A stretch of DNA of 64,000 bases, taken from Pseudofrankia inefficax. GTDB taxonomy: Bacteria > Actinomycetota > Actinomycetes > Frankiales > Frankiaceae. The notes under the pieces were generated by a model. It was given only the letters and a program-made list of their open reading frames with translations, did no database searches and was not told the DNA's origin. The stretch covers positions 3,844,001-3,908,000 of the forward strand of contig NC_014666.1 in NCBI RefSeq assembly GCF_000166135.1, read 5' to 3'. Position numbers and translations under genes: made by a program. Shown here piece after piece: positions 9,731 through 56,415 of the stretch. The stretch's first letter is position 1. Every line of letters starts with the position of its first letter.

Positions 9731-36538
<26,808 letters not shown>

Positions 36539-36636: not shown

Positions 36637-39600
36637 TCAGTGGTCGGTCGCGAGGCTTTTCGGGGGTCTGGTGCCGAAGCCGCCCAGGCTCGGGGGCGCC
36701 AGCGGTGGCGCCGGCGGGAGCGGTGCCGGTGGGCCGGTGGGGACCAGGTCCGGCCCGGGTGCGTTCGGCGGTTTCGCCTTGAGCGGCAGCCCGGTGCGTC
36801 TCCCCACGAGGTCCCGGATCGGGCCTTCGAGCGCCGCGCCCCTGGGTATGGGCGGCAGATCGGGGACCTCGACCCGCCCGAGGTAGTCGGACGTGGTCGG
36901 TTTCCAGGACTGTTCGGCCGGGTCCCAGCGGTAGCGCTGGATCCAGACGTCGCCGGTCTCCGCCTCGTACTGGACCAGGCCGAACTCGCCGTTGGCCCGC
37001 GCGGGCAGGCGCCACTCCGAGGCCTGCCGCATCGCCTTGCGCGTGCCCGAGTTGTTCAGCGGCTTGACCTCGCCGACGGAGAAGCCGCCGACCCGCGGGT
37101 TGAGCCGGGCCTCGGCGGCCGCCGCGGCTCCGTCGAAGAACAGCATGACCTGGGCGGCGTTCCCGAGGCCGTGCAGGACCTGGAGGGTGCCGACCACGAC
37201 CCGCTCGCCCGGGGTGAGGCCGTTCCCGTTGCCACGTACCCCCTGGTGGACGTTCTCGCTGCCCTCGGACAGCAGCGTCGGGATCTCCGACGCCGCGACG
37301 ACCAGCGCCGGGCCGACGGCGAGCGCGTCGCCGATCACCTGGATCGCGGTCGCGACGACCATGCCCGCGAGCGAGGCCTGCGTCCGCCGGATCTCGGCAT
37401 CGAAGCCGTTGTCGAGTCGCGCGCTGCCCAGGTCGGTGACGAACCCGCCGGCGGCGTCGGCCACCGAGCTGACGCCGCGCTGCCAGCTGGCGAGGCTGCT
37501 CTTGATGTCGCCGAGGACGGAAGCGGCCAGGCCGTAGGGGTCGGCCCGGTTGACCGGGTCACCGGCCGCGTACTCGTAGAGGTCGAACCCGTCGAGCGGG
37601 CCGAGGGGATCGGGCGTCAGGAACTCGCCGAGCGCCGGGGAGTACCAGCGGTCGCGCAGGAAGACGAGGCCGGTGATGGCGGACCGGTAGCCGCCGAAGG
37701 CGCCGAACGGCACCCCGAGGGTGGCGACCTGATCGGGCCCGGTCTCCACGGTGATCAGAGCGCCGGTGTCGTCGAACACCGTCACCCGGCCCTCGGGCGT
37801 GTAGGACGCGGACCGCGTGAGGCGCCCGGTCGACGGCCGCCACAGGCCGCTGACGTTCTTCGACTGGTCCGCGAGCACGACCATCGGGTCGCCGCCGGCC
37901 AGGTCGCCGACCGCCAGCAACTCGTCGACCGTCCCGCCCCACTGGGCCTGCCAGCTGGGCGATCCTCCCGGGCCGTAGCCGGTGACCGGCTGGTCGCCGT
38001 CCCAGCCGACGAGTGACGCGACGCCCGCCCCTCCCGGGGTCGGGCTGACGGTCGCGACGAGCCGGCCGGCGTCGTCGTACAGGTAGCCCTCGGCGAGGTG
38101 GCCGGAGCGCCGCATGGTGGCGAGCCGCCCGGCCGGGTCCCAGCTGTACGCCGCCGACCCGGCCGACGTGGTCCGCCCGGCCGCGTCGTATCCGATGGGG
38201 ACACTGACCGCGTCGATCTGGACGTCCGCCAGTTCGTGGCCCGGCGAACGGGGGGCACCGAGCGCCCAGCGGGGGGTGCCGGCGCTGTCGGAGACCGACC
38301 GGACGGAGCCGGTGCCCGGTTCTCGGTCGTACGTCCAGGCGCTCGTGCCGTCGTCGGCGGAGGCCAGCCGGGAGCGTTGGTCGTAGCCGTAGCCGGCCGT
38401 CCGTGACCGGGTGGTCGTTCCCCCTCCGGGCTGGGGCAGGACCAGCTCCTCGGCGACGGACGCATACCGGCCGGCGGTGTCCCGGGGGGTCACCGAGCGG
38501 CGCAGCACCCCGGCCGGGCCGGGCACCTTGGCGACCGACGCGGTCGGCAGGGCGAAGGCGTCGACCGTGATCGCCTCGGCGAACGTCTCGACGCCGGCGA
38601 CGGTGTGCCGTCGGCCGGTGGGCACGGCGCCGAGCCAGGACAGCTCGATGGTGGGCTGCCCGGCGGCGGGTGGGCCGGCGGCCAGCGTTCGCAACCGTCC
38701 GGCGAGGTCGTAGGTGTGCTGGGTCGGCCAGGTGAACGGGCCGCAGATGTGGTCACTGGAGCGGCGCCAGGCATTCCCGGCTACCGACCAGGTGTGGGCG
38801 ATGTCCACGGGCGGGCTGGTGCCGACGGTGACCCGCTCGGCGTTCACCCGACCGAACCGGTCGTACCCCAGCTCGCGGACCACCGCCGAGTCCGCGGGCG
38901 CCACCCCGCTCGCCGGGTTGGCGCGCTCGGCGCGGACCACCCGGGCCAGGTCGTCGTAGGTCCAGGACGCGAGCGTCCGCCAGCGCGGCGCCGCCCAGTA
39001 CTGCTGCGCCCGGAGATCGCCGCCGGCGTCGTACTCGGTGCGCAGCAGGGTGACGCCGTCGTCGCGCAGGACCTCGCGGCCCAGCTGGTCGTAGACCCAG
39101 GTGCGGGCAGCCGCCCCCGTGCGTTCCAGCCGTTCGACGGCGCCGAACGGGTCGCGCACGTAGTGGGTCGTCTCCCCGTCGGGGTCGGTGAGCAGCCGCG
39201 GGGCGCCGCGCCCGTCGTACTCGACGGTGGCGCGGGCGAGGGCCGGCGGGCGTGCCGCGTCGAGCTCGTCGGCAAGCGCGGTCGGCCAGCCCAGCCAGTT
39301 GGTCCAGACCTGGGTGGCGGAGCCGTCGGCGTGGGCGACCCGGCGGACATGGCCGTCGGGGCCGCGTTCGATCACGGTGGCGCGCTCCTGGCCGCCGGCC
39401 CAGCTCGACTCGCGCACGAGGCGGCCGGAGGGGTCGAAGGCCCGCACGGTGGTGACCGTGCGCCGGGTGGCCCCGTCGACCATGATCGCCGCCTCCGTCG
39501 CGACCCGGCTGAGCGGGTCCCAGGTGCGGACGGTCTGGTTTCCCTCGCCGTCGACCGTCCAGACAGGCTGCCCGGACAGGTCGAACGTGGTGTGGACCGG

Positions 39601-42600
39601 TCCCGCGCCGGTCGGCTCGTTGCGCCAGCCGCGCCCGCCGGGGGTGCGGCGCCACCGGGCGGTGACGACCCCGCCGTCGATGCGGCGCGACAGGTCGCCG
39701 AACTCGTCGTACTCGAGGCTCAGCTCCCATGTCGAGGTCGCCGGCACCTGGTCGGGGTACGGCGCGTCGTCCCGCTTCACCCGCGACAGCTGGTCGCCGG
39801 CGGTGTACGCCAGCTGCCAGGCGAAGCCGCGGCTGTCGACGCGCAGCGTGCATCGGCCCAGCCCGTCGTAGCCGTACTGCTCGGCGAGCTCCGGGCCGCC
39901 GAGAGCCAGGCTGTCGCCGGCCCGCAGCTCCAGCAGGTGGCCGTCGTCGGTGTAGCGGGCGCGGTGCCGGCGGCGGTCACCGGGGCGGGCAGGGTGGCTC
40001 GCCTCGGTGAACTCGCGGCGCTTCGCCGCGTCATACCGCAGGGTCGTGACCAGGCCGGTGGGGTCGACCGCCCGGCCGAGGGCGCCCTCGGGGGTGTACT
40101 CGTAGCTGTGGGTCACCGGGTCGCCCGCCGCCGAACCGGTGAACTCCCGGGTGGCGGTCACCCTGCCTTCCTCGTCGTGGTCGATCTCGGTGTGGCCGCA
40201 GAGCGCCCCGTCGGAGCCGTACCGGTCAGTCGTCCGGGGGAAGCCGTCCTGGTCGAGGGCGATCACGAGCCGTTGGTCGGGCGTGCTGACCGTGCGCACC
40301 CGGCCGTCGGTGTCACGCTCCACGGTGGTGACGGCACCGTCCGCCCAGATCCGGCGGGACACGCCGAGAACGCTGTGCGTGAACGAGGCTGACCGTTCCA
40401 GCGGTCCCGTCGAGGCGAGGACCGCCGCGACCGTCTCGGGAGGCAGGCCAGCCGTGGCGAGCGCCGCCTGCACAGCGGCCTGGTCGGCCGGCACGGTGCC
40501 CGGCAGCATCCACTGGTAGGGGCCCGGCAGCCCCGGGCAGGGCGCGGCGGCCGGGCCGAGCGCAAGGGGATAGACCGCGCCGTCGTGCCGGGAGACCCGG
40601 ACCCGGGCGAGCAGGCCCGCGTAGCCCGGGTTGACGGCGCTGTCGGGCGGCAGCGTGCCATCGCCATACCGGTCCGCCTCCGACCCGTTCGGGGCCAGCG
40701 GGTAGTACGCGAAACTCACCCGCCCGCCGTCGGGGTCCATCGCCCACGCGAGCCGGCCGGCGCTGTTCCAGGCCAGCGACGACACCCGCCGAGTCCCAGC
40801 GGTGCCCGTGCGGACGACCAGCACGGGCCGGCCCTGACCGCGCCGGTGCGGCCCGGGCCCGGCACCGAGAACTCCGTCGCCGTTCAGGTCGACCCCGTAC
40901 AGGGGCAGCCTGAGCTGCCAGGTCACGACCGTGTCCCGGTCGTAGCCGGTCGGCGTCCGGGCCCAGCCGAAGCCCCAGGGCGCGAGCTCGTCGAGCAGCG
41001 GGGCGAGGCTGCCCGGCGAGTCGGGAGGGACGTCGAGGCTCAGCTCCTGGTAGTCCATCACCCAGCGCACGATCTCGGCGGGCACATACACCGGGGACGG
41101 GCCTGTCAGCTCGATCGCGCCGCGCTCGAACTCGCGCAGCTGGTTGAACAGCGGCTCGTAGCTGTAGGCCAGGTAACGGCCGGTCGCCTGGGGGAAGCCG
41201 GCCGGGCCGTGGTCGTTCGCCGCGCCGCCGGCCGCGCGTTCCTCCTCCCGGAGCAGGTTGCGCCGCCGCGTCCAGTAGGCCGGCAGGCTCCCGTCCCAGC
41301 CGAGTGAGCCGGTGGGGTCGATGACGTCGTAGGTGTAGACGGTCGTCGCGACCCCCGTGTCGAGGGCGGCGCCGCGCTGGGCGGCACGGACCAGCGCCGG
41401 ATCGCCGTCGGCCGTGACGAACCGCTCGAGGAAGACCCAGGCGAGCTCGTCCTCGGGGTTCGCGCCCCGGTCGAGGCGTGCCTCGACCAGCAGGTCGCCG
41501 CGGTAGTTGAGCCCGTAGTACCGCAGGTCCCCGTCCCGGTCGACGATCGACGTCCACCGGCAGACCCGGTTGGCGTTCACCGCGACGAGCTGGCGCCGGC
41601 CGGTGATCCGGTGCGGCCGCTGGACCTGCTTCGTCGCGCCGCCCGCGACCGGCACGTCGAGCATCTCGAGGGCCGACAGCAGGTCGTTGTGGGTGGGATC
41701 GCCGACCTGGGCCATCGCGAGCTGGTCGGGGCTCAGCCAGGTGCGGGTCAGCCGGGTGGTCGGGGCGGGTGTGGCGAGCGCCGGGTCGCCCGCCGTGTAC
41801 GGGACGTACGGGCGCCAGCCCGGGAGCTGGGCGCGGGCCTGCTCCATCGCGCCGTAGTCGCACCAGCCGTCCTCGTCGGGCTGGCCGGTGACCGGGTGGG
41901 CCGGGTCGCTGGCCGGCTCCGGGCGCGGTTCCAGCGGGTAGCGGCGCGCGACCGGGCCCGGCAGGAAACCGTCGGTGCGGTCGGTGGCACCCTCTCCGGG
42001 TGGCAGCGGGCCCGCGTCGGCGTAGCCGAAGGCGGCTTTGGGCAGCGCGCCGCGCCAGTCGTCGCCGGGCTGGTCGGGCGGGACCACCCCCGGGGCCGGG
42101 AGCGCCACCGAGCTTCCGTACCGCTGGGCGAGGACCCGCCCGTAGGTCACGGAGAACGGGTCGTTGTCGTACCGGGTCTCCGACTCGATCCGGCCAGACC
42201 GGGTCACGGTGCGGATACCGGCGGCGACGGACGCGATGTAGGCGAGGGCCTCCCGGCGGGCGAGCACCGCCGGGTCGCCGGCGCTGGACTCGATGAGCGG
42301 GCGGATCACGAGCTGCCCGTGGCAGTCGAACACCGACCGGTGCAGGCAGTTGACGAAGGTGCGGAAGTACGCGCCGAACCGTCTCTCGACCTCGTCGGCG
42401 TACGGCTCCCACGGCACGACCGCCGGCGCCTCATGGGTCGGCGGTGTCACCGGGCGCCGCGGCCACTGGTACTCGTACGTGTACTCGACGGCCGACGACG
42501 CCGTCACGTCGGCCGGGCGGGCGGGCGCGTCGGTGCGCGCGGCCCGCAGGAGGAAGAACTGGTTGAGCTCGGCCGGGTGGCCCGCCGGCTGCGCGTAGGT

Positions 42601-45600
42601 ATAGGTGACGGACGTACCGGCGGGACCGGCCACGCTCGTCAGCAGCTCCGCGTCGGGTGTCTGGGCGAAGCCGTACAGCGGGTCGCCGTCGGCGTCGGTC
42701 CCGACGGCCGGCGCCGTCCCGTAGCTGAGGACGAGGTCGCGGCCGAGGTCGTCCGTCACCAGCACCGGCCGTTCCCGGGCGAATCCGTAGGCGCACTCCG
42801 CGTTGGGCCCGCGGCCTGCGACGTCGAGCAGGAGGCCGCGCGCGTACCCGAGTGGAGCGCGCGCCACGGGGTCGGCGGGCAGCGGGTAGTCGGCGGCGTC
42901 GAGCTGGTAGGCGGACGCGTCGCCGGGCCGCGCCCCGAGGTCGAGCAGCCACGCCAGCAGGGCGAAACGCCGGTGCGCCAGGGTCTGGCCGGGCGGGGCC
43001 GCCGCCCAGTAGTGGTCGAAGAGCGCCTGCAGGGGGGTGCGTTCGAGGCGGAGCGCGAAGCCGTTGCCGAACCGGTCACGACGGGAGGTGAGGTGGCCGA
43101 GCTCGTCGTACCGTTCCAGCGCGCCGTCCGCGGCGCGGCGCAGCCAGCCGTCGTCGACCCTCAGGATGGTGTCCGTGCTGCCGGCGGGCGGCATGAACAG
43201 CTGGCTGTCGAGGTCCCTGACGAACAGGTCGACGGCCCCGGCCCGATAGGCCAGCACCGCGTTCCGGTCGGCGCCGTCGGGCCCGCCCGCGCAGTAGGGC
43301 GCGGCCCAGGCCGGCATCGTGTCGGCCGTGAGCGCGACGATCCTCGCTGACCAGTTGTGGTCCCAAGCGGTGCCGAGCACCGAGCGGCCCAGGTCGCCCG
43401 ACGTGTAGTGCCGGGCGAACTCGAGGGGCGCCGCCGGGCCCGCGAACGACAGGTCCGTCGTGTCGATGGTGAAACGGCCGTCGGCGACGGTGACCGGGTC
43501 CGCGTGAACCGGTTCCTCCCCCCTGGCCGCCTTCGCGGGCGGGACCGGCTGGGACGGTGCCGGTGTCGGGGTCTCCGGCGGCCTGGGTGCCGGGTTCGGG
43601 CCTTCCCGGGTGTGCGGCTCGCGGTCCCCTTCCGGCGGCTTCTTCGCCGGTGGCGTCGGCGTCCGGTTGCCCGTGATCGACGCCGGGTCGAAGTCCGCTT
43701 CGTTCCAGTCACTCCTGGGCTGCGAGCCAGGGGTGGGCTTCTCCGGCGCCTCGGTGCCGGCGGGGCCGTCCGTGTCGGTGCTCTCGCCGTCGTTCGAGGA
43801 CCCCCCGTCCGCGTACGGGTCGACGTCGGGGCGTCTGTACTCCTGATGGCAGGCGCCGGCCGCGTCGCACACCGCGCACACCTCGACGTCGAGCCGGTCC
43901 GACTGCGTGCAGTGCCGCGCCTCGTGGCCGGGAATCCAGCCGGCGGCCAGCTGGAGCGCGCCGTTGGCCAGCGCCTTCTCGGTCTCCGTCTGGGCATGGC
44001 AGGCGCCCTCGTCGCCGTACGGCCGGGCCACGACGCACCCGGGTGGCACCGAGCTGTGCGCCGCGTAGGGCCCGCCGCAGCTGTCGCACCAGCCGCCGCA
44101 CTCGGGTGGCAGGGTCTCCCAGTGCCCCACGGTGCAGTGCGCCGGAACGTCGTGCCCGGCGCGCGCGCCACCCCCGCCGACCCCGCACGGATCGGACGAC
44201 GAGTTGCTGCCCGGGTCGTCGCTCGTGAAGACGCCGTCGCCGGGGTCGCACACGGGCGTCGCGACCGCGCATCTGGGGTCGCGGACGTCGACGCAGTCGC
44301 CGAACACCGCGTGGAGCCCGTCCGGGCCGAACCCGTACATCGCCGCGTTCACCCGTCCCCGCCCGGTCGCGTCGCGGGCGGTGAGCCGCAGCGGTGGGAC
44401 CGCGGAGACGCCCAGCTCGTCGGACGGCGGCAGCCACGGCACGCCGCCATCCACCGGGTCGCCGCCGCCGGGACCCGAGCCGCCTCCCGGCCCGCCCGGG
44501 CTGGACGAGCCGGCGGTCGGGACGCAGATCGTCGCGGGCCCGCAGCAGGCCTGGCCCAGCGACCCGAGGGCGCCGGACGCCGCGAAACGGGCGGCGCCAC
44601 CCAGCCAGGTGGCCGTGCCGGCGAGCTCGATCGCGGCGACGCTCATCCGTTCGGCCTCGACCAGGCCGCGGGTGTCGTCCACCCGCGGGTCGTCGACGAC
44701 GAGGAACAGCGAGCCGCGGAAGCCGACGGGCTGCCCCTCCTCGCCGCGGCGGACCTGGGCGACGACGCGCAGGGTGGCCGGGTCGCCCGCCCGCGCGGCG
44801 AGGCGCGCCGCCGCGACCGACGTCAGCGCGTCCGTTCCGCGGGCCTGCCCCGACTCCGTCGCCCGCGCGACCGCCAGGTCGAAGTCAGCCCGGGACAGCA
44901 CGATCGCCGCAGGGTCAGCGGGAGTGAACCCGTCCACGCGGGTCGCGACGGCGTGCGTTACGGAGACCAGGGCGCGGATCGCGGCGGCCCCGACCGCCGG
45001 CGACCGCGCGGGCGCGCCGTCGCCGTCTACCTGGCACCCACGGCCCGTCAGCAGGATGGCGCTCGGGGTCGCGGTGACGCCGAACCGGCGGGCGATCGCC
45101 TGGCCGTCGTCCGCGACGGCAGACCGCAGCCGGTGGCGGCGGGCCAGCTCGCGCGCCTCCGACGCCGACCCGGAGATCACGACGCGCAGCGAGAGGACGT
45201 CCTGCCACTGCTCCAGCGACGGAAGCAGGGCAAGGCAGGGAGCGCAGCGGGCGTGGAGGAAGACCAGCAGCGTGCGGGGCCGTCCGGGCGTGGCTGTACC
45301 AAGCGTCAGCCGGGCTCCCTCGACCGTCGTCGCCGGCTGCCGGGGCGGCCGGGCGCACTGACCGCGGCGCAGCCCTACCACCGCCACCGCGGCGCCCACG
45401 GCCAGCAGGGCCAGCGCCACAGCTGCCGCCGTCGCCAGGTCGAGGCCGCGCCGGGGATGGCCCGCGCGTGCCGCGACCGCCAGGGCGGCGGCGACGAGAA
45501 TCCCGTTGCGGACGAGCGCCAGCGGGAACGGCGTGCGGTGGGCCGAGCCGAAACAGGCGCAGCCGTCGTCTGCTCCCGTTGCCTGCCGCTGCGCGAGCAG

Positions 45601-45861
45601 CGCGGCCGTGAAGACCGTGAACAGCCCCGCGGCCGCGGCCGCGGCGACAGTGGCGCTGGCGCTGGCCAGCATTCCGGCCGCGACCAGGATCTCCACGATC
45701 GGCACGGCGAAGGCCAGCGGAACGGAGAGCGAACGGGCCCGGCGCCCGAGGACGGCGAGTTCCGAGAGCTCGCCGCGGAAAGCAGGTAACTCCAGACCTT
45801 TGGCCGTCGCGCCCAAGCAAAGAATGAGGCCGAGGACAAGCCGCGCGGCCAGGTCGAACAT
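36637..45861 (-). CDS. MauE-thioredoxin-RHS fusion protein
   Basis: One open frame of about 3,074 residues. The ATG at 45861 has GGGAGG nine bases upstream; a longer frame to 46107 is not supported. Residues 1-165 are MauE/DoxX-like: about five membrane helices with CACF at 101-104. Residues about 180-300 form a thioredoxin fold, CAPC at 206-209 and the cis-Pro motif GVTATPS near 261-267. Residues 300-450 are unassigned and end in a CC/C cluster (439, 440, 446). Residues 510-680 are cysteine-rich, with GHEARHC giving an HExxH motif at 646-650. After a Pro-rich linker, a DUF6531-type RHS start appears near 785, then YD repeats. The RHS core ends near 2,775 with DPLG, 19 residues, then DPYGL, the known self-cleavage arrangement. 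The last 297 residues are the cargo, with hydrophobic stretches and a GEVKPLN motif. No immunity gene follows, because the next gene is the convergent giant. With five TM helices the C-terminal bulk should be outside. Confidence 0.88.
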   Translation of the reverse strand: MFDLAARLVLGLILCLGATAKGLELPAFRGELSELAVLGRRARSLSVPLAFAVPIVEILVAAGMLASASATVAAAAAAGLFTVFTAALLAQRQATGADDGCACFGSAHRTPFPLALVRNGILVAAALAVAARAGHPRRGLDLATAAAVALALLAVGAAVAVVGLRRGQCARPPRQPATTVEGARLTLGTATPGRPRTLLVFLHARCAPCLALLPSLEQWQDVLSLRVVISGSASEARELARRHRLRSAVADDGQAIARRFGVTATPSAILLTGRGCQVDGDGAPARSPAVGAAAIRALVSVTHAVATRVDGFTPADPAAIVLSRADFDLAVARATESGQARGTDALTSVAAARLAARAGDPATLRVVAQVRRGEEGQPVGFRGSLFLVVDDPRVDDTRGLVEAERMSVAAIELAGTATWLGGAARFAASGALGSLGQACCGPATICVPTAGSSSPGGPGGGSGPGGGDPVDGGVPWLPPSDELGVSAVPPLRLTARDATGRGRVNAAMYGFGPDGLHAVFGDCVDVRDPRCAVATPVCDPGDGVFTSDDPGSNSSSDPCGVGGGGARAGHDVPAHCTVGHWETLPPECGGWCDSCGGPYAAHSSVPPGCVVARPYGDEGACHAQTETEKALANGALQLAAGWIPGHEARHCTQSDRLDVEVCAVCDAAGACHQEYRRPDVDPYADGGSSNDGESTDTDGPAGTEAPEKPTPGSQPRSDWNEADFDPASITGNRTPTPPAKKPPEGDREPHTREGPNPAPRPPETPTPAPSQPVPPAKAARGEEPVHADPVTVADGRFTIDTTDLSFAGPAAPLEFARHYTSGDLGRSVLGTAWDHNWSARIVALTADTMPAWAAPYCAGGPDGADRNAVLAYRAGAVDLFVRDLDSQLFMPPAGSTDTILRVDDGWLRRAADGALERYDELGHLTSRRDRFGNGFALRLERTPLQALFDHYWAAAPPGQTLAHRRFALLAWLLDLGARPGDASAYQLDAADYPLPADPVARAPLGYARGLLLDVAGRGPNAECAYGFARERPVLVTDDLGRDLVLSYGTAPAVGTDADGDPLYGFAQTPDAELLTSVAGPAGTSVTYTYAQPAGHPAELNQFFLLRAARTDAPARPADVTASSAVEYTYEYQWPRRPVTPPTHEAPAVVPWEPYADEVERRFGAYFRTFVNCLHRSVFDCHGQLVIRPLIESSAGDPAVLARREALAYIASVAAGIRTVTRSGRIESETRYDNDPFSVTYGRVLAQRYGSSVALPAPGVVPPDQPGDDWRGALPKAAFGYADAGPLPPGEGATDRTDGFLPGPVARRYPLEPRPEPASDPAHPVTGQPDEDGWCDYGAMEQARAQLPGWRPYVPYTAGDPALATPAPTTRLTRTWLSPDQLAMAQVGDPTHNDLLSALEMLDVPVAGGATKQVQRPHRITGRRQLVAVNANRVCRWTSIVDRDGDLRYYGLNYRGDLLVEARLDRGANPEDELAWVFLERFVTADGDPALVRAAQRGAALDTGVATTVYTYDVIDPTGSLGWDGSLPAYWTRRRNLLREEERAAGGAANDHGPAGFPQATGRYLAYSYEPLFNQLREFERGAIELTGPSPVYVPAEIVRWVMDYQELSLDVPPDSPGSLAPLLDELAPWGFGWARTPTGYDRDTVVTWQLRLPLYGVDLNGDGVLGAGPGPHRRGQGRPVLVVRTGTAGTRRVSSLAWNSAGRLAWAMDPDGGRVSFAYYPLAPNGSEADRYGDGTLPPDSAVNPGYAGLLARVRVSRHDGAVYPLALGPAAAPCPGLPGPYQWMLPGTVPADQAAVQAALATAGLPPETVAAVLASTGPLERSASFTHSVLGVSRRIWADGAVTTVERDTDGRVRTVSTPDQRLVIALDQDGFPRTTDRYGSDGALCGHTEIDHDEEGRVTATREFTGSAAGDPVTHSYEYTPEGALGRAVDPTGLVTTLRYDAAKRREFTEASHPARPGDRRRHRARYTDDGHLLELRAGDSLALGGPELAEQYGYDGLGRCTLRVDSRGFAWQLAYTAGDQLSRVKRDDAPYPDQVPATSTWELSLEYDEFGDLSRRIDGGVVTARWRRTPGGRGWRNEPTGAGPVHTTFDLSGQPVWTVDGEGNQTVRTWDPLSRVATEAAIMVDGATRRTVTTVRAFDPSGRLVRESSWAGGQERATVIERGPDGHVRRVAHADGSATQVWTNWLGWPTALADELDAARPPALARATVEYDGRGAPRLLTDPDGETTHYVRDPFGAVERLERTGAAARTWVYDQLGREVLRDDGVTLLRTEYDAGGDLRAQQYWAAPRWRTLASWTYDDLARVVRAERANPASGVAPADSAVVRELGYDRFGRVNAERVTVGTSPPVDIAHTWSVAGNAWRRSSDHICGPFTWPTQHTYDLAGRLRTLAAGPPAAGQPTIELSWLGAVPTGRRHTVAGVETFAEAITVDAFALPTASVAKVPGPAGVLRRSVTPRDTAGRYASVAEELVLPQPGGGTTTRSRTAGYGYDQRSRLASADDGTSAWTYDREPGTGSVRSVSDSAGTPRWALGAPRSPGHELADVQIDAVSVPIGYDAAGRTTSAGSAAYSWDPAGRLATMRRSGHLAEGYLYDDAGRLVATVSPTPGGAGVASLVGWDGDQPVTGYGPGGSPSWQAQWGGTVDELLAVGDLAGGDPMVVLADQSKNVSGLWRPSTGRLTRSASYTPEGRVTVFDDTGALITVETGPDQVATLGVPFGAFGGYRSAITGLVFLRDRWYSPALGEFLTPDPLGPLDGFDLYEYAAGDPVNRADPYGLAASVLGDIKSSLASWQRGVSSVADAAGGFVTDLGSARLDNGFDAEIRRTQASLAGMVVATAIQVIGDALAVGPALVVAASEIPTLLSEGSENVHQGVRGNGNGLTPGERVVVGTLQVLHGLGNAAQVMLFFDGAAAAAEARLNPRVGGFSVGEVKPLNNSGTRKAMRQASEWRLPARANGEFGLVQYEAETGDVWIQRYRWDPAEQSWKPTTSDYLGRVEVPDLPPIPRGAALEGPIRDLVGRRTGLPLKAKPPNAPGPDLVPTGPPAPLPPAPPLAPPSLGGFGTRPPKSLATDH

Positions 45862-47465: not shown

Positions 47466-47550
47466 GTCCGGGTGGCGGAATGGCAGACGCGCTAGCTTGA
47501 GGTGCTAGTGCCCTTTAACGGGCGTGGGGGTTCAAGTCCCCCCTCGGACA
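47466..47550 (+). tRNA. tRNA-Leu (anticodon GAG)
   Basis: An 85-base class II tRNA. The acceptor arms GTCCGGG and CTCGGAC pair with one wobble. The D arm has GGCGGAATGGCAGACGC, and the anticodon stem CTAGC/GCTAG encloses TTGAGGT, giving GAG. A long variable arm GCCC-TTTAAC-GGGC is followed by the T arm GGGGG-TTCAAGT-CCCCC and discriminator A. CCA is not encoded. The serine recombinase remnant ends inside its T arm on the other strand. Confidence 0.95.
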
Positions 47551-48815
47551 CGATCCATTACCCTGCGGTAGCTAGAGTCGATCTTCGCGTCGACTCGCAC
47601 CGTGTTGGTGGCCGGCTGGTAGGCCAGGCGCAGGTTGAGTTGGCGGTAGAGGTCCGCTTTGTCGGCGGGCTCGGCGGCGGCGAGCGCTGCGGCGACGTCG
47701 CCGATCGAGTCGATCATGTTGCTGATGTCGTCGCGGGTCAGGTGTCGTTCCTGGTCCTGGTTCGCCTGGCGGAGGTCGCGCTCGGCGGTGGTCTTCTCGG
47801 CTTGGGCTTGTGCGATCCACGCGGTCACGACCTGGGGGTCGGCTCCTGCGTCCAACGCCGCCCGGTAGCGGGGTCAGCTTGGCGTTGCTCTCCTCGATCG
47901 CCCGTCGCGCCTGTGCGACGGTGGCGTCGTCGCATGACGGACTGGACTGGGCCGCGACCATGGCATCGAGGGTGCTGGTGAGCTGCGGGGGTGCGAGCGC
48001 GCGGGCGAGCCAGCCGTCGAGGGCAGGCAGGACAGTGTCCTCGCGCAGGTAGACGTTCGCTGGGTGGCTGACTGTGTTCGCCAGGGCGTACTCCTGGGGG
48101 TAGCGGCAGCGGTAGTAGGTGACGTCGCGGACAGTGTGCCCTTGCATCTTCCGGTCGCAGACGGCGCAGTAGAGCGCGCCTCGGAGTGCGTAGGGCCGGC
48201 GCGTGCGCGGCATCTTCTGGTCGCCGGGGCCGCGTCCCCGGCCGGCGAGAATCTGCTGGGCCTGGGTGAACACCTCGGTCGTGATGATCTCCTGGTGGAC
48301 AGTCTGGTCCGACCAGACCCAGTCCGCGGCGGCGTTCCAGCGCAACCTGGTGGTGTGCCCGAGATGACGTCCTCGACGTCGAGTAGGACCTCGTCCTTGC
48401 GTTGGCGGTTCCAGACCTGCCGGCCGGTATAGCGGGGGTTGGTCAGGATCGCGCGGATGGCGCCCTTCGACCAGGCCAGTCCGTCGCGGTGGGAGTTACG
48501 AGCCGGATCGTGGGCGGAAGGGCAGGGGGTGCCGTCACGGGTCAGGCCTTCGGCGATCGCGAACAGGCCGCTGCCGCGGAGGAACTCGGCGAAGATCCGG
48601 ACGACGACGGGCGCGGCCGTCTCGTCGATCGCGAGTCCGTGTAGCTGTCGGCCGTCGGCTGCCTTGGCGGGGTTGGGATGCGGGCCGAGGTTGGTCAGCC
48701 GGTAGCCGTAGGGCGGGCGGCCGCCGAGGTAGCGTCCTTCGACCTTGGCCTGGGCGGCCATCGCGCTGCGGACGCGGATCTTGATGCGGTTGCGTTCGCC
48801 TTTGGACATGCCTCC
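47532..48815 (-). pseudogene. Large serine recombinase remnant with two frameshifts
   Basis: Recombinase and zinc-ribbon parts of a large serine recombinase in three reading frames. The first piece starts at GGMSKGERNRIKIRV (48815 downward) and runs through GRYLGGRPPYGYRL and NPRYTGRQVWNRQRKDE. Near 48357 one C is missing, and homology continues in the next frame (LRWNAAADWVW, then RPYALRGALYCAVCDRKMQG, the zinc ribbon). Near 47871 one base is extra, and the last 107 codons follow with a coiled-coil-like helix and the C-terminal YRQLNLRLAYQP. The N-terminal resolvase catalytic domain with its serine is absent: upstream sequence is unrelated. The TGA lies inside the tRNA-Leu T arm, 19 bp of overlap, as expected for an integrase whose attachment site is the tRNA 3' end. 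It cannot be active. Confidence 0.85.
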
Positions 48816-49283
48816 TTGAGCGGGCGTGGGACCTTTAACGCGTAGATATTCGGGCATGCCCTGGACGCTCGACGATGGCGCCCTCGGGACTACCCTCGCG
48901 CGGGACATTGCGTCGACGTCGCCGTGTAACGCGTCCCCGGGAGGGACCTCCGTGAGGGTGCCTTGACGCGTCGGCGGTCGCGCGAGCATGGCGCTGGCCT
49001 TCTCCGACCAGCCGGCCTGGGCTGGCTCCTGGATCCACAAAAGTAGGTTCGGCTTTCGCCAATGTCCTGAAGCATCACGGTGCTCGGGCGGGCGGGGCCT
49101 GAACCTGCGGCCGAAAGACTATGAGATCAATCTTCCGGAACATTCCTTGCTGACGATTGCTGTCGTCGGGTGTCTCTTGTGGAGGATTTCTGTTGGCTCT
49201 TCGGAGTTCCAGGGCGGAGCGAACCCGGTCAGCATGCCATCGAACGCTAGTTCGATGATGTGCTGAAGGGGAGCCGTCCTCGT
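48816..49283. other. Non-coding junction region beside the recombinase remnant
   Basis: No gene is supported here. The segment lies where the missing catalytic domain of the recombinase should be and contains the tRNA-like fragment at 49081-49125. Short plus-strand ORFs reading GLNLRPKDYE are translations of that fragment and not proteins. Confidence 0.5.
49081..49125 (-). pseudogene. 3' half of a tRNA-Met-like gene
   Basis: On the minus strand, from CTCATAG (anticodon loop with CAT) the sequence continues TCTTTCGGCCGCAGGTTCAGG and into a CCCGCC-rich acceptor-like end. This follows the anticodon loop, variable loop, T arm and acceptor order of tRNA-Met. The upstream bases cannot pair with the anticodon-stem strand, and no D arm precedes it. 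A break exactly at the anticodon loop is what integration into a tRNA leaves behind. The T stem has one mismatch, so it is decayed. Confidence 0.5.
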
Positions 49284-55409: not shown

Positions 55410-56415
55410 TTATGCGGCGAGGGCGTCGGTGGTGACGCTGATCTCGGGTGTGTCGGCGGGGTTTTCGTTGGGGTCGGTTTTGGCGAGGATTTCCAGTCCG
55501 AAGTAGCGGTGGGTCTCGATCCATTCGTCGTGCTGTTCGGCGAGGACGGCGCCGACGGGGCGGATGATGGCTTCGCGGTTCGGGAAGATACCGACGACGT
55601 CGGTGCGCCGGCGGATCTCCTTGTTGAGCCGTTCCTGCGGGTTCGATGACCAGATCTGACGCCAGATCTCTCGAGGATAGGTGGTGAACGCGAGTACGTC
55701 GGCTTTGGCTTCCTCCAGGTGCGTCGCGGCGCGGGGTAGCTTCTCGGCCAGGCCGTCGACGGCCCGGTCGAACTGTGCGTTCACCTCGGTCGCGTCGGCC
55801 TGATCGAAGATTGTTCGCACGAGCGTGGCGACCCAGGGCTGCGACGTCGCGCCGATCGAGGCGACCAGGCCGGCATGCGCGTCGGAGGTGACCAGGCGGA
55901 CGCCGGTCAGGCCGCGGGCGACCAGGCCCCGGAAGAACGCCAGCCAGCCGGCGCCGTCCTCGCTGCTCACGACGTCGAGGCCGAGGATCTCGCGGTGCCC
56001 GTCGCCGTTGACGCCGACCGCGAGCAGGCAGTGCACGTTGATCACTCGGCCGTCCTCGCGGACCTTCATCGTCAACGCATCCGCCTGCACGAACCGGTAC
56101 GGACCGGCGTCCAGCGGCCGGGAGCGGAACGCCTCGACCTGGCCGTCGAGGTGCCGGGCGAGCTCGGAGACCTGGGATTTGGAGATATGCGCGACGCCGA
56201 GTTGCTCGACCAGTCTGTCGACCCGGCGCGTCGATACTCCGCGCAGGTAGGACGTCGCGACGACCGAGATCAGTGCCTGCTCGGCGCGCCGGCGCCGCGT
56301 CAACAGCCATTCCGGGAAATACGAGCCCTGCCGCAGCCGCGGAATCGCCAGCTCGATCGTCCCGGCCCGGGTGTCCCACGCCCGATCCCGGTAACCATTC
56401 CGACGATTAGCTGGT
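55410..56415 (-). mobile_element. IS256-family transposase with N-terminal loss and internal deletion
   Basis: Minus-strand Mutator/IS256 transposase. The frame begins without a proper start near 56415 (RRNGYRDRAWDTRAGTIEL) and stays open to 55410. Catalytic positions are recognisable: Asp in FVQADALTMKVRE, Asp in LVTSDAHAGL and Glu in NPQERLNKEIRRRTDVVGIF. About 25 residues are missing between GLVASIGAT and SQPWVATLV, exactly where the family has its W-x-x-C-R-x-H motif. The deletion is in frame. The first 70-80 residues are also lost. The protein is therefore unlikely to transpose. It separates the WD40-type and XRE-type fragments, so the insertion probably disrupted older genes. Terminal inverted repeats were not found. 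Confidence 0.8.

What the first reader, a model, noticed from the sequence alone, without database searches (positions are those of the whole stretch)
36637..45861. Disulfide-relay module (MauE plus thioredoxin) fused to a complete RHS protein
A single frame joins a five-helix MauE-like domain with a CxCF motif, a thioredoxin fold with CAPC and cis-Pro, a cysteine-rich segment and a full RHS/YD shell with the DPxG..DPxGL self-cleavage motif. MauE and its thioredoxin-like partner MauD are normally separate proteins that form disulfides in methylamine dehydrogenase. I know of no described RHS protein that carries its own thiol-oxidation machinery. It would anchor the shell to the membrane and could oxidise its own cysteine-rich segment or other exported proteins.
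Basis: partly seen in the sequence, partly recalled or inferred. Interest (0 to 1): 0.88.

Follow-up and report, generated by a model that had tools for sequence, protein, structure and literature searches.

The report
RHS protein with fused redox module
A soil actinomycete encodes one giant protein that joins a membrane-embedded thiol-exchange module to a large toxin-type protein shell, a combination not seen in the other genomes sampled and still without a proven function.

Summary
One uninterrupted minus-strand frame (ATG 45861 to stop 36637, 3074 aa) encodes, in order: five hydrophobic helices with a MauE domain (Pfam 61.7 bits, cut-off 27), a ResA/MauD-like thioredoxin fold (CAPC, cis-Pro), an orphan stretch, a 17-cysteine segment, a Pro-rich linker, an RHS shell with RHS core (DPLG...DPYGL) and an orphan 296-aa C-terminus. 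Codon-position GC and start sites argue against a frameshift or second start.

One correction: MauE-thioredoxin fusions are not new. 16 loci (15 mycobacterial, one Gaiella) carry them; the 15 add a Cys-rich domain of their own. The fusion to RHS is what stands alone: of 85 MauE-type matches in 286 class genomes only this one lies in a frame above 800 aa, and 7 congeners lack it (capped searches).

Best reading: a membrane-anchored RHS protein with a built-in thiol oxidoreductase, most simply for its own Cys-rich collar. Orientation and direction are inferred; loop charges argue against the outward orientation. The convergent neighbour, an 8463-aa adhesin with 72 repeats and 144 paired cysteines, is a tempting second substrate. 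New variant of a known kind.

The parts
36637..45861 (-). MauE-Trx-Cys-rich-RHS gene, 3074 aa
45361..45861 (-). Five hydrophobic helices, aa 1-167; MauE domain aa 3-130 with CxCFG (aa 101-105)
   Evidence: Pfam; helices 2-23, 49-66, 70-95, 112-133, 142-166; invariant residues
44962..45309 (-). Thioredoxin fold, ResA/MauD-like, aa 185-300; CAPC 206-209, TPSA 265-268 with the cis-Pro at 266
   Evidence: Pfam alone below cut-off
44572..44934 (-). Orphan alpha/beta stretch, aa 310-430
   Evidence: model only, block pLDDT 34-70; within aa 300-686, two other genomes of 246 searched gave short weak hits
43849..44547 (-). Cys-rich segment, aa 439-671, 17 Cys; a helix plus three strands at 626-676 is modelled with block pLDDT 74-90 over 631-680
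   Evidence: no similarity to one mycobacterial Cys-rich domain, that of L048
43507..43824 (-). Pro-rich linker, aa 680-785, 23.6% Pro
37528..43500 (-). RHS shell, aa 788-2778: DUF6531 (788-844), RHS repeats, RHS core (2723-2778) with DPLG...DPYGL
36640..37527 (-). C-terminal domain after the RHS core, aa 2779-3074, no family; FDG 2909, EVKP 2931, Q 2946
   Evidence: no family over a cut-off; low-confidence model
11147..36538 (+). Convergent neighbour: 8463-aa adhesin, pAdhesive_15 plus 72 repeats of 111-112 aa with paired cysteines; proposed second substrate only
   Evidence: (first 951 aa scanned)

Best explanation
A membrane-anchored RHS protein that carries its own thiol-disulfide relay. 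Shown: one frame joins an intact MauE domain, a Trx domain with CxxC and cis-Pro, a 17-Cys segment, a Pro-rich linker and an RHS shell with the processing core. Inferred: five helices anchor it with the Trx and everything after it outside; MauE passes the electrons to the membrane (as VKOR or DsbB do for DsbA), keeping the Trx oxidised; the Trx forms disulfides in the adjacent Cys-rich collar, which stiffens the stalk between membrane and shell; the Pro-rich linker spans the wall; the RHS core cleaves after DPYGL and holds the C-terminal domain inside the shell, as in other RHS proteins.
For: Intact motifs and 32-37% identity to 13 other MauE-Trx fusions along both domains. The 15 mycobacterial MauE-Trx proteins also carry a Cys-rich domain C-terminally, unrelated in sequence in the one pair compared; that the same arrangement arose twice is inference. 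The genome has no VKOR match, while the same search finds VKOR in 3 of 14 control genomes; its other MauE gene sits in a row with genes that read, by eye, as DsbA-like and SCO1-like, as an export-side redox operon would. In class I lasso peptides a DoxX-family membrane protein and a Trx protein are assigned to disulfide formation (PMC7168211, passages). A polytopic membrane enzyme fused before RHS has a precedent, PrsW-RHS (PMC3482391, passages). RHS core over its cut-off.
Against: Charge distribution points the other way: with the N-terminus inside, outside loops carry 5, 2 and 7 K/R and inside loops 0, 0 and 3; the same bias appears in two of three other fusions checked (L042, L039; for L048 only four helices were found). 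The stand-alone MauE is not clear-cut either (3, 4, 1, 3 and a long tail with 16), so the rule may not fit this family. The Trx resembles ResA, a reductase by established knowledge. 17 Cys is an odd number. The gene is known from one genome, so no conservation argument exists for the fusion.
Confidence: 0.45

Rival explanations
1. The module serves the neighbouring giant adhesin. The RHS protein would be a surface-tethered oxidase that forms the one disulfide expected in each of the adhesin's 72 repeats, so the convergent pair would be one surface system.
For: 98 bases lie between the two stop codons. 144 of the adhesin's 146 Cys lie in 72 repeats; all 69 singly spaced repeats have exactly two Cys, 13 apart, and one 333-residue gap counted as three repeats holds six. 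No VKOR match in this genome. In Actinomyces oris oxidative folding of pilus proteins depends on MdbA and the electron transport chain (PMC5478893, abstract).
Against: Convergent genes share no promoter. Cys pairs are a general feature of such repeats: 9, 12 and 4 pairs 13 apart in Streptomyces, Phyllobacterium and Loktanella proteins (the last two cut short). Co-occurrence elsewhere was not tested.
Confidence: 0.15
2. The module runs in the reducing direction, like ResA, or works as a redox switch: it would reduce or rearrange disulfides in the collar or the target, for example to release the shell.
For: Best profile and structural relatives include ResA (no Foldseek E-value under 0.001).
Against: CxxC and fold do not decide polarity; MauE has been speculated to help form disulfides (PMC7794033, passage).
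Confidence: 0.15
3. The module and everything after it are cytoplasmic; the Cys-rich segment binds metal and the RHS shell is assembled at the membrane before release.
For: Charge bias of the loops; C651, C662, C665 and C671 lie on the confidently modelled three-strand element, which could hold zinc.
Against: The neighbour of the genome's other MauE reads as a DsbA-like protein with an N-terminal hydrophobic anchor (by eye), which suits an outward face. No secretion genes were recognised beside the gene (a partial annotation).
Confidence: 0.15
4. Accidental fusion: the MauE-Trx part now acts only as a membrane anchor for an RHS toxin whose tip is a REase-like nuclease domain.
For: Single-genome occurrence; C-terminal FDG, EVK and Q resemble motifs listed for Tox-REase clades (PMC3482391, passages).
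Against: All redox residues are intact; no toxin family reached in Pfam or NCBIfam; no immunity gene follows, only 98 bases to the convergent gene.
Confidence: 0.2
5. Frameshift or misassembly joins two genes.
For: None found.
Against: Continuous codon phase, one-contig genome, no second good start.
Confidence: 0.03

Closest known systems
MauE-Trx fusions of mycobacteria and Gaiella (found here)
   Same: MauE then Trx in one chain with the same motifs; the mycobacterial ones also end in a Cys-rich domain
   Different: Mycobacterial ones are about 480-500 aa from the MauE start, have an RR plus hydrophobic stretch before the Cys-rich domain and no RHS; Gaiella has MauE-Trx-Trx
MauE/MauD of methylamine utilisation (Pfam PF07291, TIGR02661)
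   Same: MauE domain over its cut-off; Trx weakly matches MauD
   Different: One chain; MauD equivalog cut-off not reached; fused to RHS
PrsW-RHS polymorphic toxins (PMC3482391, passages)
   Same: Multi-helix membrane enzyme at the N-terminus of an RHS protein
   Different: PrsW is a peptidase; here a thiol oxidoreductase. 'thioredoxin', 'disulfide', 'MauE' and 'DoxX' do not occur in the held part of that survey, the first 300,000 of 357,715 characters
RHS/Tc/T6SS shells (PDB 7q97, 8qja, 6suf, 9c4k and others listed)
   Same: RHS core at the end of the shell
   Different: None of the 19 listed is named as carrying a redox module (molecule names only)
VKOR-Trx fusions (recalled)
   Same: Membrane thiol oxidase fused to Trx
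   Different: Different membrane domain; no RHS

Membership tests
MauE (PF07291) | Score over Pfam gathering cut-off | tested here: met
   61.7 and 64.5 bits against 27
MauE (PF07291) | Place in a methylamine utilisation cluster | not tested
   no mau genes were searched for apart from MauE
MauD equivalog (TIGR02661) | Score over curated cut-off | tested here: not met
   19.5 bits against 188.6 on the 300-aa piece
Thioredoxin fold | CxxC, cis-Pro, thioredoxin core | tested here: met
   CAPC 206, TPSA 265, block pLDDT 78-87 over 201-270, profile hits to ResA and thioredoxins; single-sequence Pfam match below cut-off
RHS protein | RHS/YD repeats and RHS core | tested here: met
   PF05593 44.2 bits against 22; TIGR03696 51 bits against 32.5, profile positions 21-76 of 76
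Polymorphic toxin system | Recognised toxin domain after the core | tested here: inconclusive
   no family over a cut-off; motif likeness only
Polymorphic toxin system | Immunity gene directly downstream | tested here: not met
   98 bases to the end of the convergent adhesin gene
PrsW-RHS | PrsW peptidase domain | tested here: not met
   not among Pfam matches up to E 1 for the whole protein or E 10 for four pieces
Disulfide oxidase pair (DsbB/VKOR-DsbA type) | Net oxidation of exported thiols | not testable with these tools
   needs biochemistry

The most novel reading that the evidence does not exclude
A self-contained surface machine: an RHS shell tethered by its own disulfide-generating module, which staples its Cys-rich stalk and the 72 paired-cysteine repeats of the adhesin encoded tail to tail with it, in a cell without VKOR where MauE modules have taken over oxidative folding.
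Probability: 0.1. Interest if true: 0.82.

Novelty: new variant of a known kind. Interest (0 to 1): 0.52.

Why it matters
No RHS protein with its own redox chemistry turned up in what was searched here. If the module works, one could test in a single polypeptide whether disulfides control the stalk, release or stability of an RHS shell. It also points to MauE-Trx modules as possible dedicated thiol oxidases with varied C-terminal substrates, and to a genome where MauE may stand in for VKOR.

Tried and rejected
Single-sequence scan of genome contigs with aa 1-700: 0 of 111 candidate stretches confirmed. tblastn of aa 1-700 and of aa 778-1500 against plasmids: no match. The hit of aa 326-381 in G317 lies in what reads, by eye, as a glutamate 5-kinase frame: chance. 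Two weak hits to aa 300-686 are short and were not followed. Relatives of the RHS entry region: 14 other genomes, 19 other match rows, in 296 genomes searched with the own one counted. 15 stretches covering 15 of the 19 rows were fetched (4 rows left out: G429 contig 49, G624, G443, G651). Reading what one search printed, by eye, no MauE-Trx lies upstream; but 9 of the 15 frames run to the edge of the stretch, so their N-termini are unseen, and for two (L068, L070) the printed part is not the RHS entry. The Cys-rich segment shows no similarity to the Cys-rich domain of L048. The C-terminal model (mean pLDDT 45.2) was judged too poor for a fold search. The class-wide Pfam MauE search (334 of 393 genomes match) prints only the strongest matches, so it cannot exclude other long frames; the profile search scored at most 8 candidates per genome, and the 699-aa search at most 2. 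Paper searches, listings only: MauE with 'RHS repeat' gave one genome paper; Rhs with disulfide, thioredoxin domain and self-cleavage gave 4 listed, none on this; Rhs with DUF6531/MauE gave 8 listed of 10, none with MauE. Searches returned mostly author-name or unrelated matches.

Full report
What is there. The gene runs on the minus strand from ATG 45861 to the stop at 36637, 3074 aa, with no stop. Third-position GC stays between 0.83 and 0.97 in all 31 bins of 300 bases. GGAGG lies before the ATG at 45861; among in-frame starts in the first 900 codons only codons 406 and 664 show even GAGG. The genome is one contig of 8,815,781 bases, the size printed for Frankia (now Pseudofrankia) inefficax EuI1c in PMC9680954 (passages).

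Domains. MauE 3-130 is over its Pfam cut-off. The Trx part is below cut-off in Pfam and in the MauD model taken alone, but a profile of 14 fused proteins finds thioredoxin-type structures including ResA, and the model shows five helices and then a Trx core with block pLDDT 78-87 (the mean over 700 residues is only 52.5). Foldseek's top rows are ResA and a secreted mycobacterial disulfide oxidoreductase, with no E-value under 0.001. The 17 cysteines of 439-671 contrast with 10 in the 2403 residues after them. A Pro-rich linker (23.6% Pro) leads to the RHS shell, which ends in the RHS core, profile positions 21-76 of 76. The 296 residues after it reach no family cut-off and had one weak match outside the own genome in 296 class genomes.

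Relatives of the module. A genome-contig scan with three fused proteins gave 16 relatives out of 88 candidate stretches. Their frames are all MauE-Trx: 15 mycobacterial, each with an RR-hydrophobic stretch and a Cys-rich domain, and one Gaiella with two Trx domains (read by eye). None of the 16 has RHS. Across 14 aligned sequences CxCFG, the RN pair, CxxC and TPSA are invariant. A profile of these searched 286 genomes of the class: 76 have a match at E 1e-12 or better, 85 matches in all, own ones counted; only the window's own lies in a frame over 800 aa (3166), the next being 753 and 719 (at most 8 candidates scored per genome). In eight further genomes a stop-free match runs to profile position 199 or beyond, so MauE-Trx fusions are not confined to mycobacteria. 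With aa 1-450, 14 of 57 other relatives match, all within query residues 5-134, and none of the 7 congeners.

Relatives of the shell. The first 478 residues of the shell match 14 other genomes in 296 searched, at 24-45% identity over short stretches, and nothing else in the own genome, although two other DUF6531 genes exist there. So this shell is divergent.

Setting. Downstream, with 98 bases between the stop codons, is a convergent 8463-aa gene with a pAdhesive_15 domain and 72 repeats. 144 of its 146 cysteines lie in the repeats, two per repeat, 13 apart in all 69 singly spaced ones; three repeats are inferred from one long gap with six. Three plasmid-borne relatives show such pairing too, so this is a trait of the repeat, not of this locus. 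Upstream are a methyltransferase (Pfam), tRNA-Leu, a recombinase-like region split over frames, and by eye a sigma factor, an EAL protein and an IS256-type transposase. The own genome has a second MauE gene beside DsbA-like and SCO1-like genes, named by eye, and no VKOR match.

How it probably works. The simplest reading is anchor and relay: MauE in the membrane, Trx outside, cysteines of the collar as the nearest substrate, linker through the wall, shell at the tip. The direction of electron flow and the side of the membrane are inferred. The charge rule points the other way for this protein and for two of three other fusions checked; it is not decisive for the stand-alone MauE. In the mycobacterial relatives the extra hydrophobic stretch before the Cys-rich domain (seen in L048) is hard to fit with an outward Trx, and I could not resolve this.

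Known or new. MauE, MauE-Trx, RHS, and even a multi-helix membrane enzyme before RHS (PrsW, PMC3482391, passages) are known kinds or were found here repeatedly. The redox module on an RHS shell was not met elsewhere in the searches made here, several of them capped. One genome is thin ground, hence new variant of a known kind.

Noticed in passing
11147-36538 +: 8463-aa adhesin: pAdhesive_15 plus 72 DUF7507-type repeats with one Cys pair each; it ends in VPVTG with no membrane segment after it.
   Followed up: partly
whole genome (G000): No VKOR (PF07884) match; two MauE genes. MauE may replace VKOR in oxidative folding here. DsbB was not searched.
   Followed up: partly
L039-L054 except L042: Mycobacterial family MauE-Trx-RR stretch-Cys-rich domain, about 480-500 aa, apparently a fused oxidoreductase with its own Cys-rich partner.
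   Followed up: partly
L042:9332-10798: Gaiella protein with MauE followed by two thioredoxin domains (by eye).
   Followed up: no
47466-49040: tRNA-Leu next to a serine-recombinase-like region whose reading is split over frames: possible remnant of an integrated element.
   Followed up: partly
55410-56303 -: IS256-type transposase, judged by eye.
   Followed up: no
26252-26344 -: ARAGORN call with a four-base anticodon inside the adhesin repeats; probably chance.
   Followed up: no
36640-37527 -: Orphan C-terminal domain with FDG, EVK and Q, a pattern that recalls REase-fold toxins; no immunity gene beside it.
   Followed up: partly
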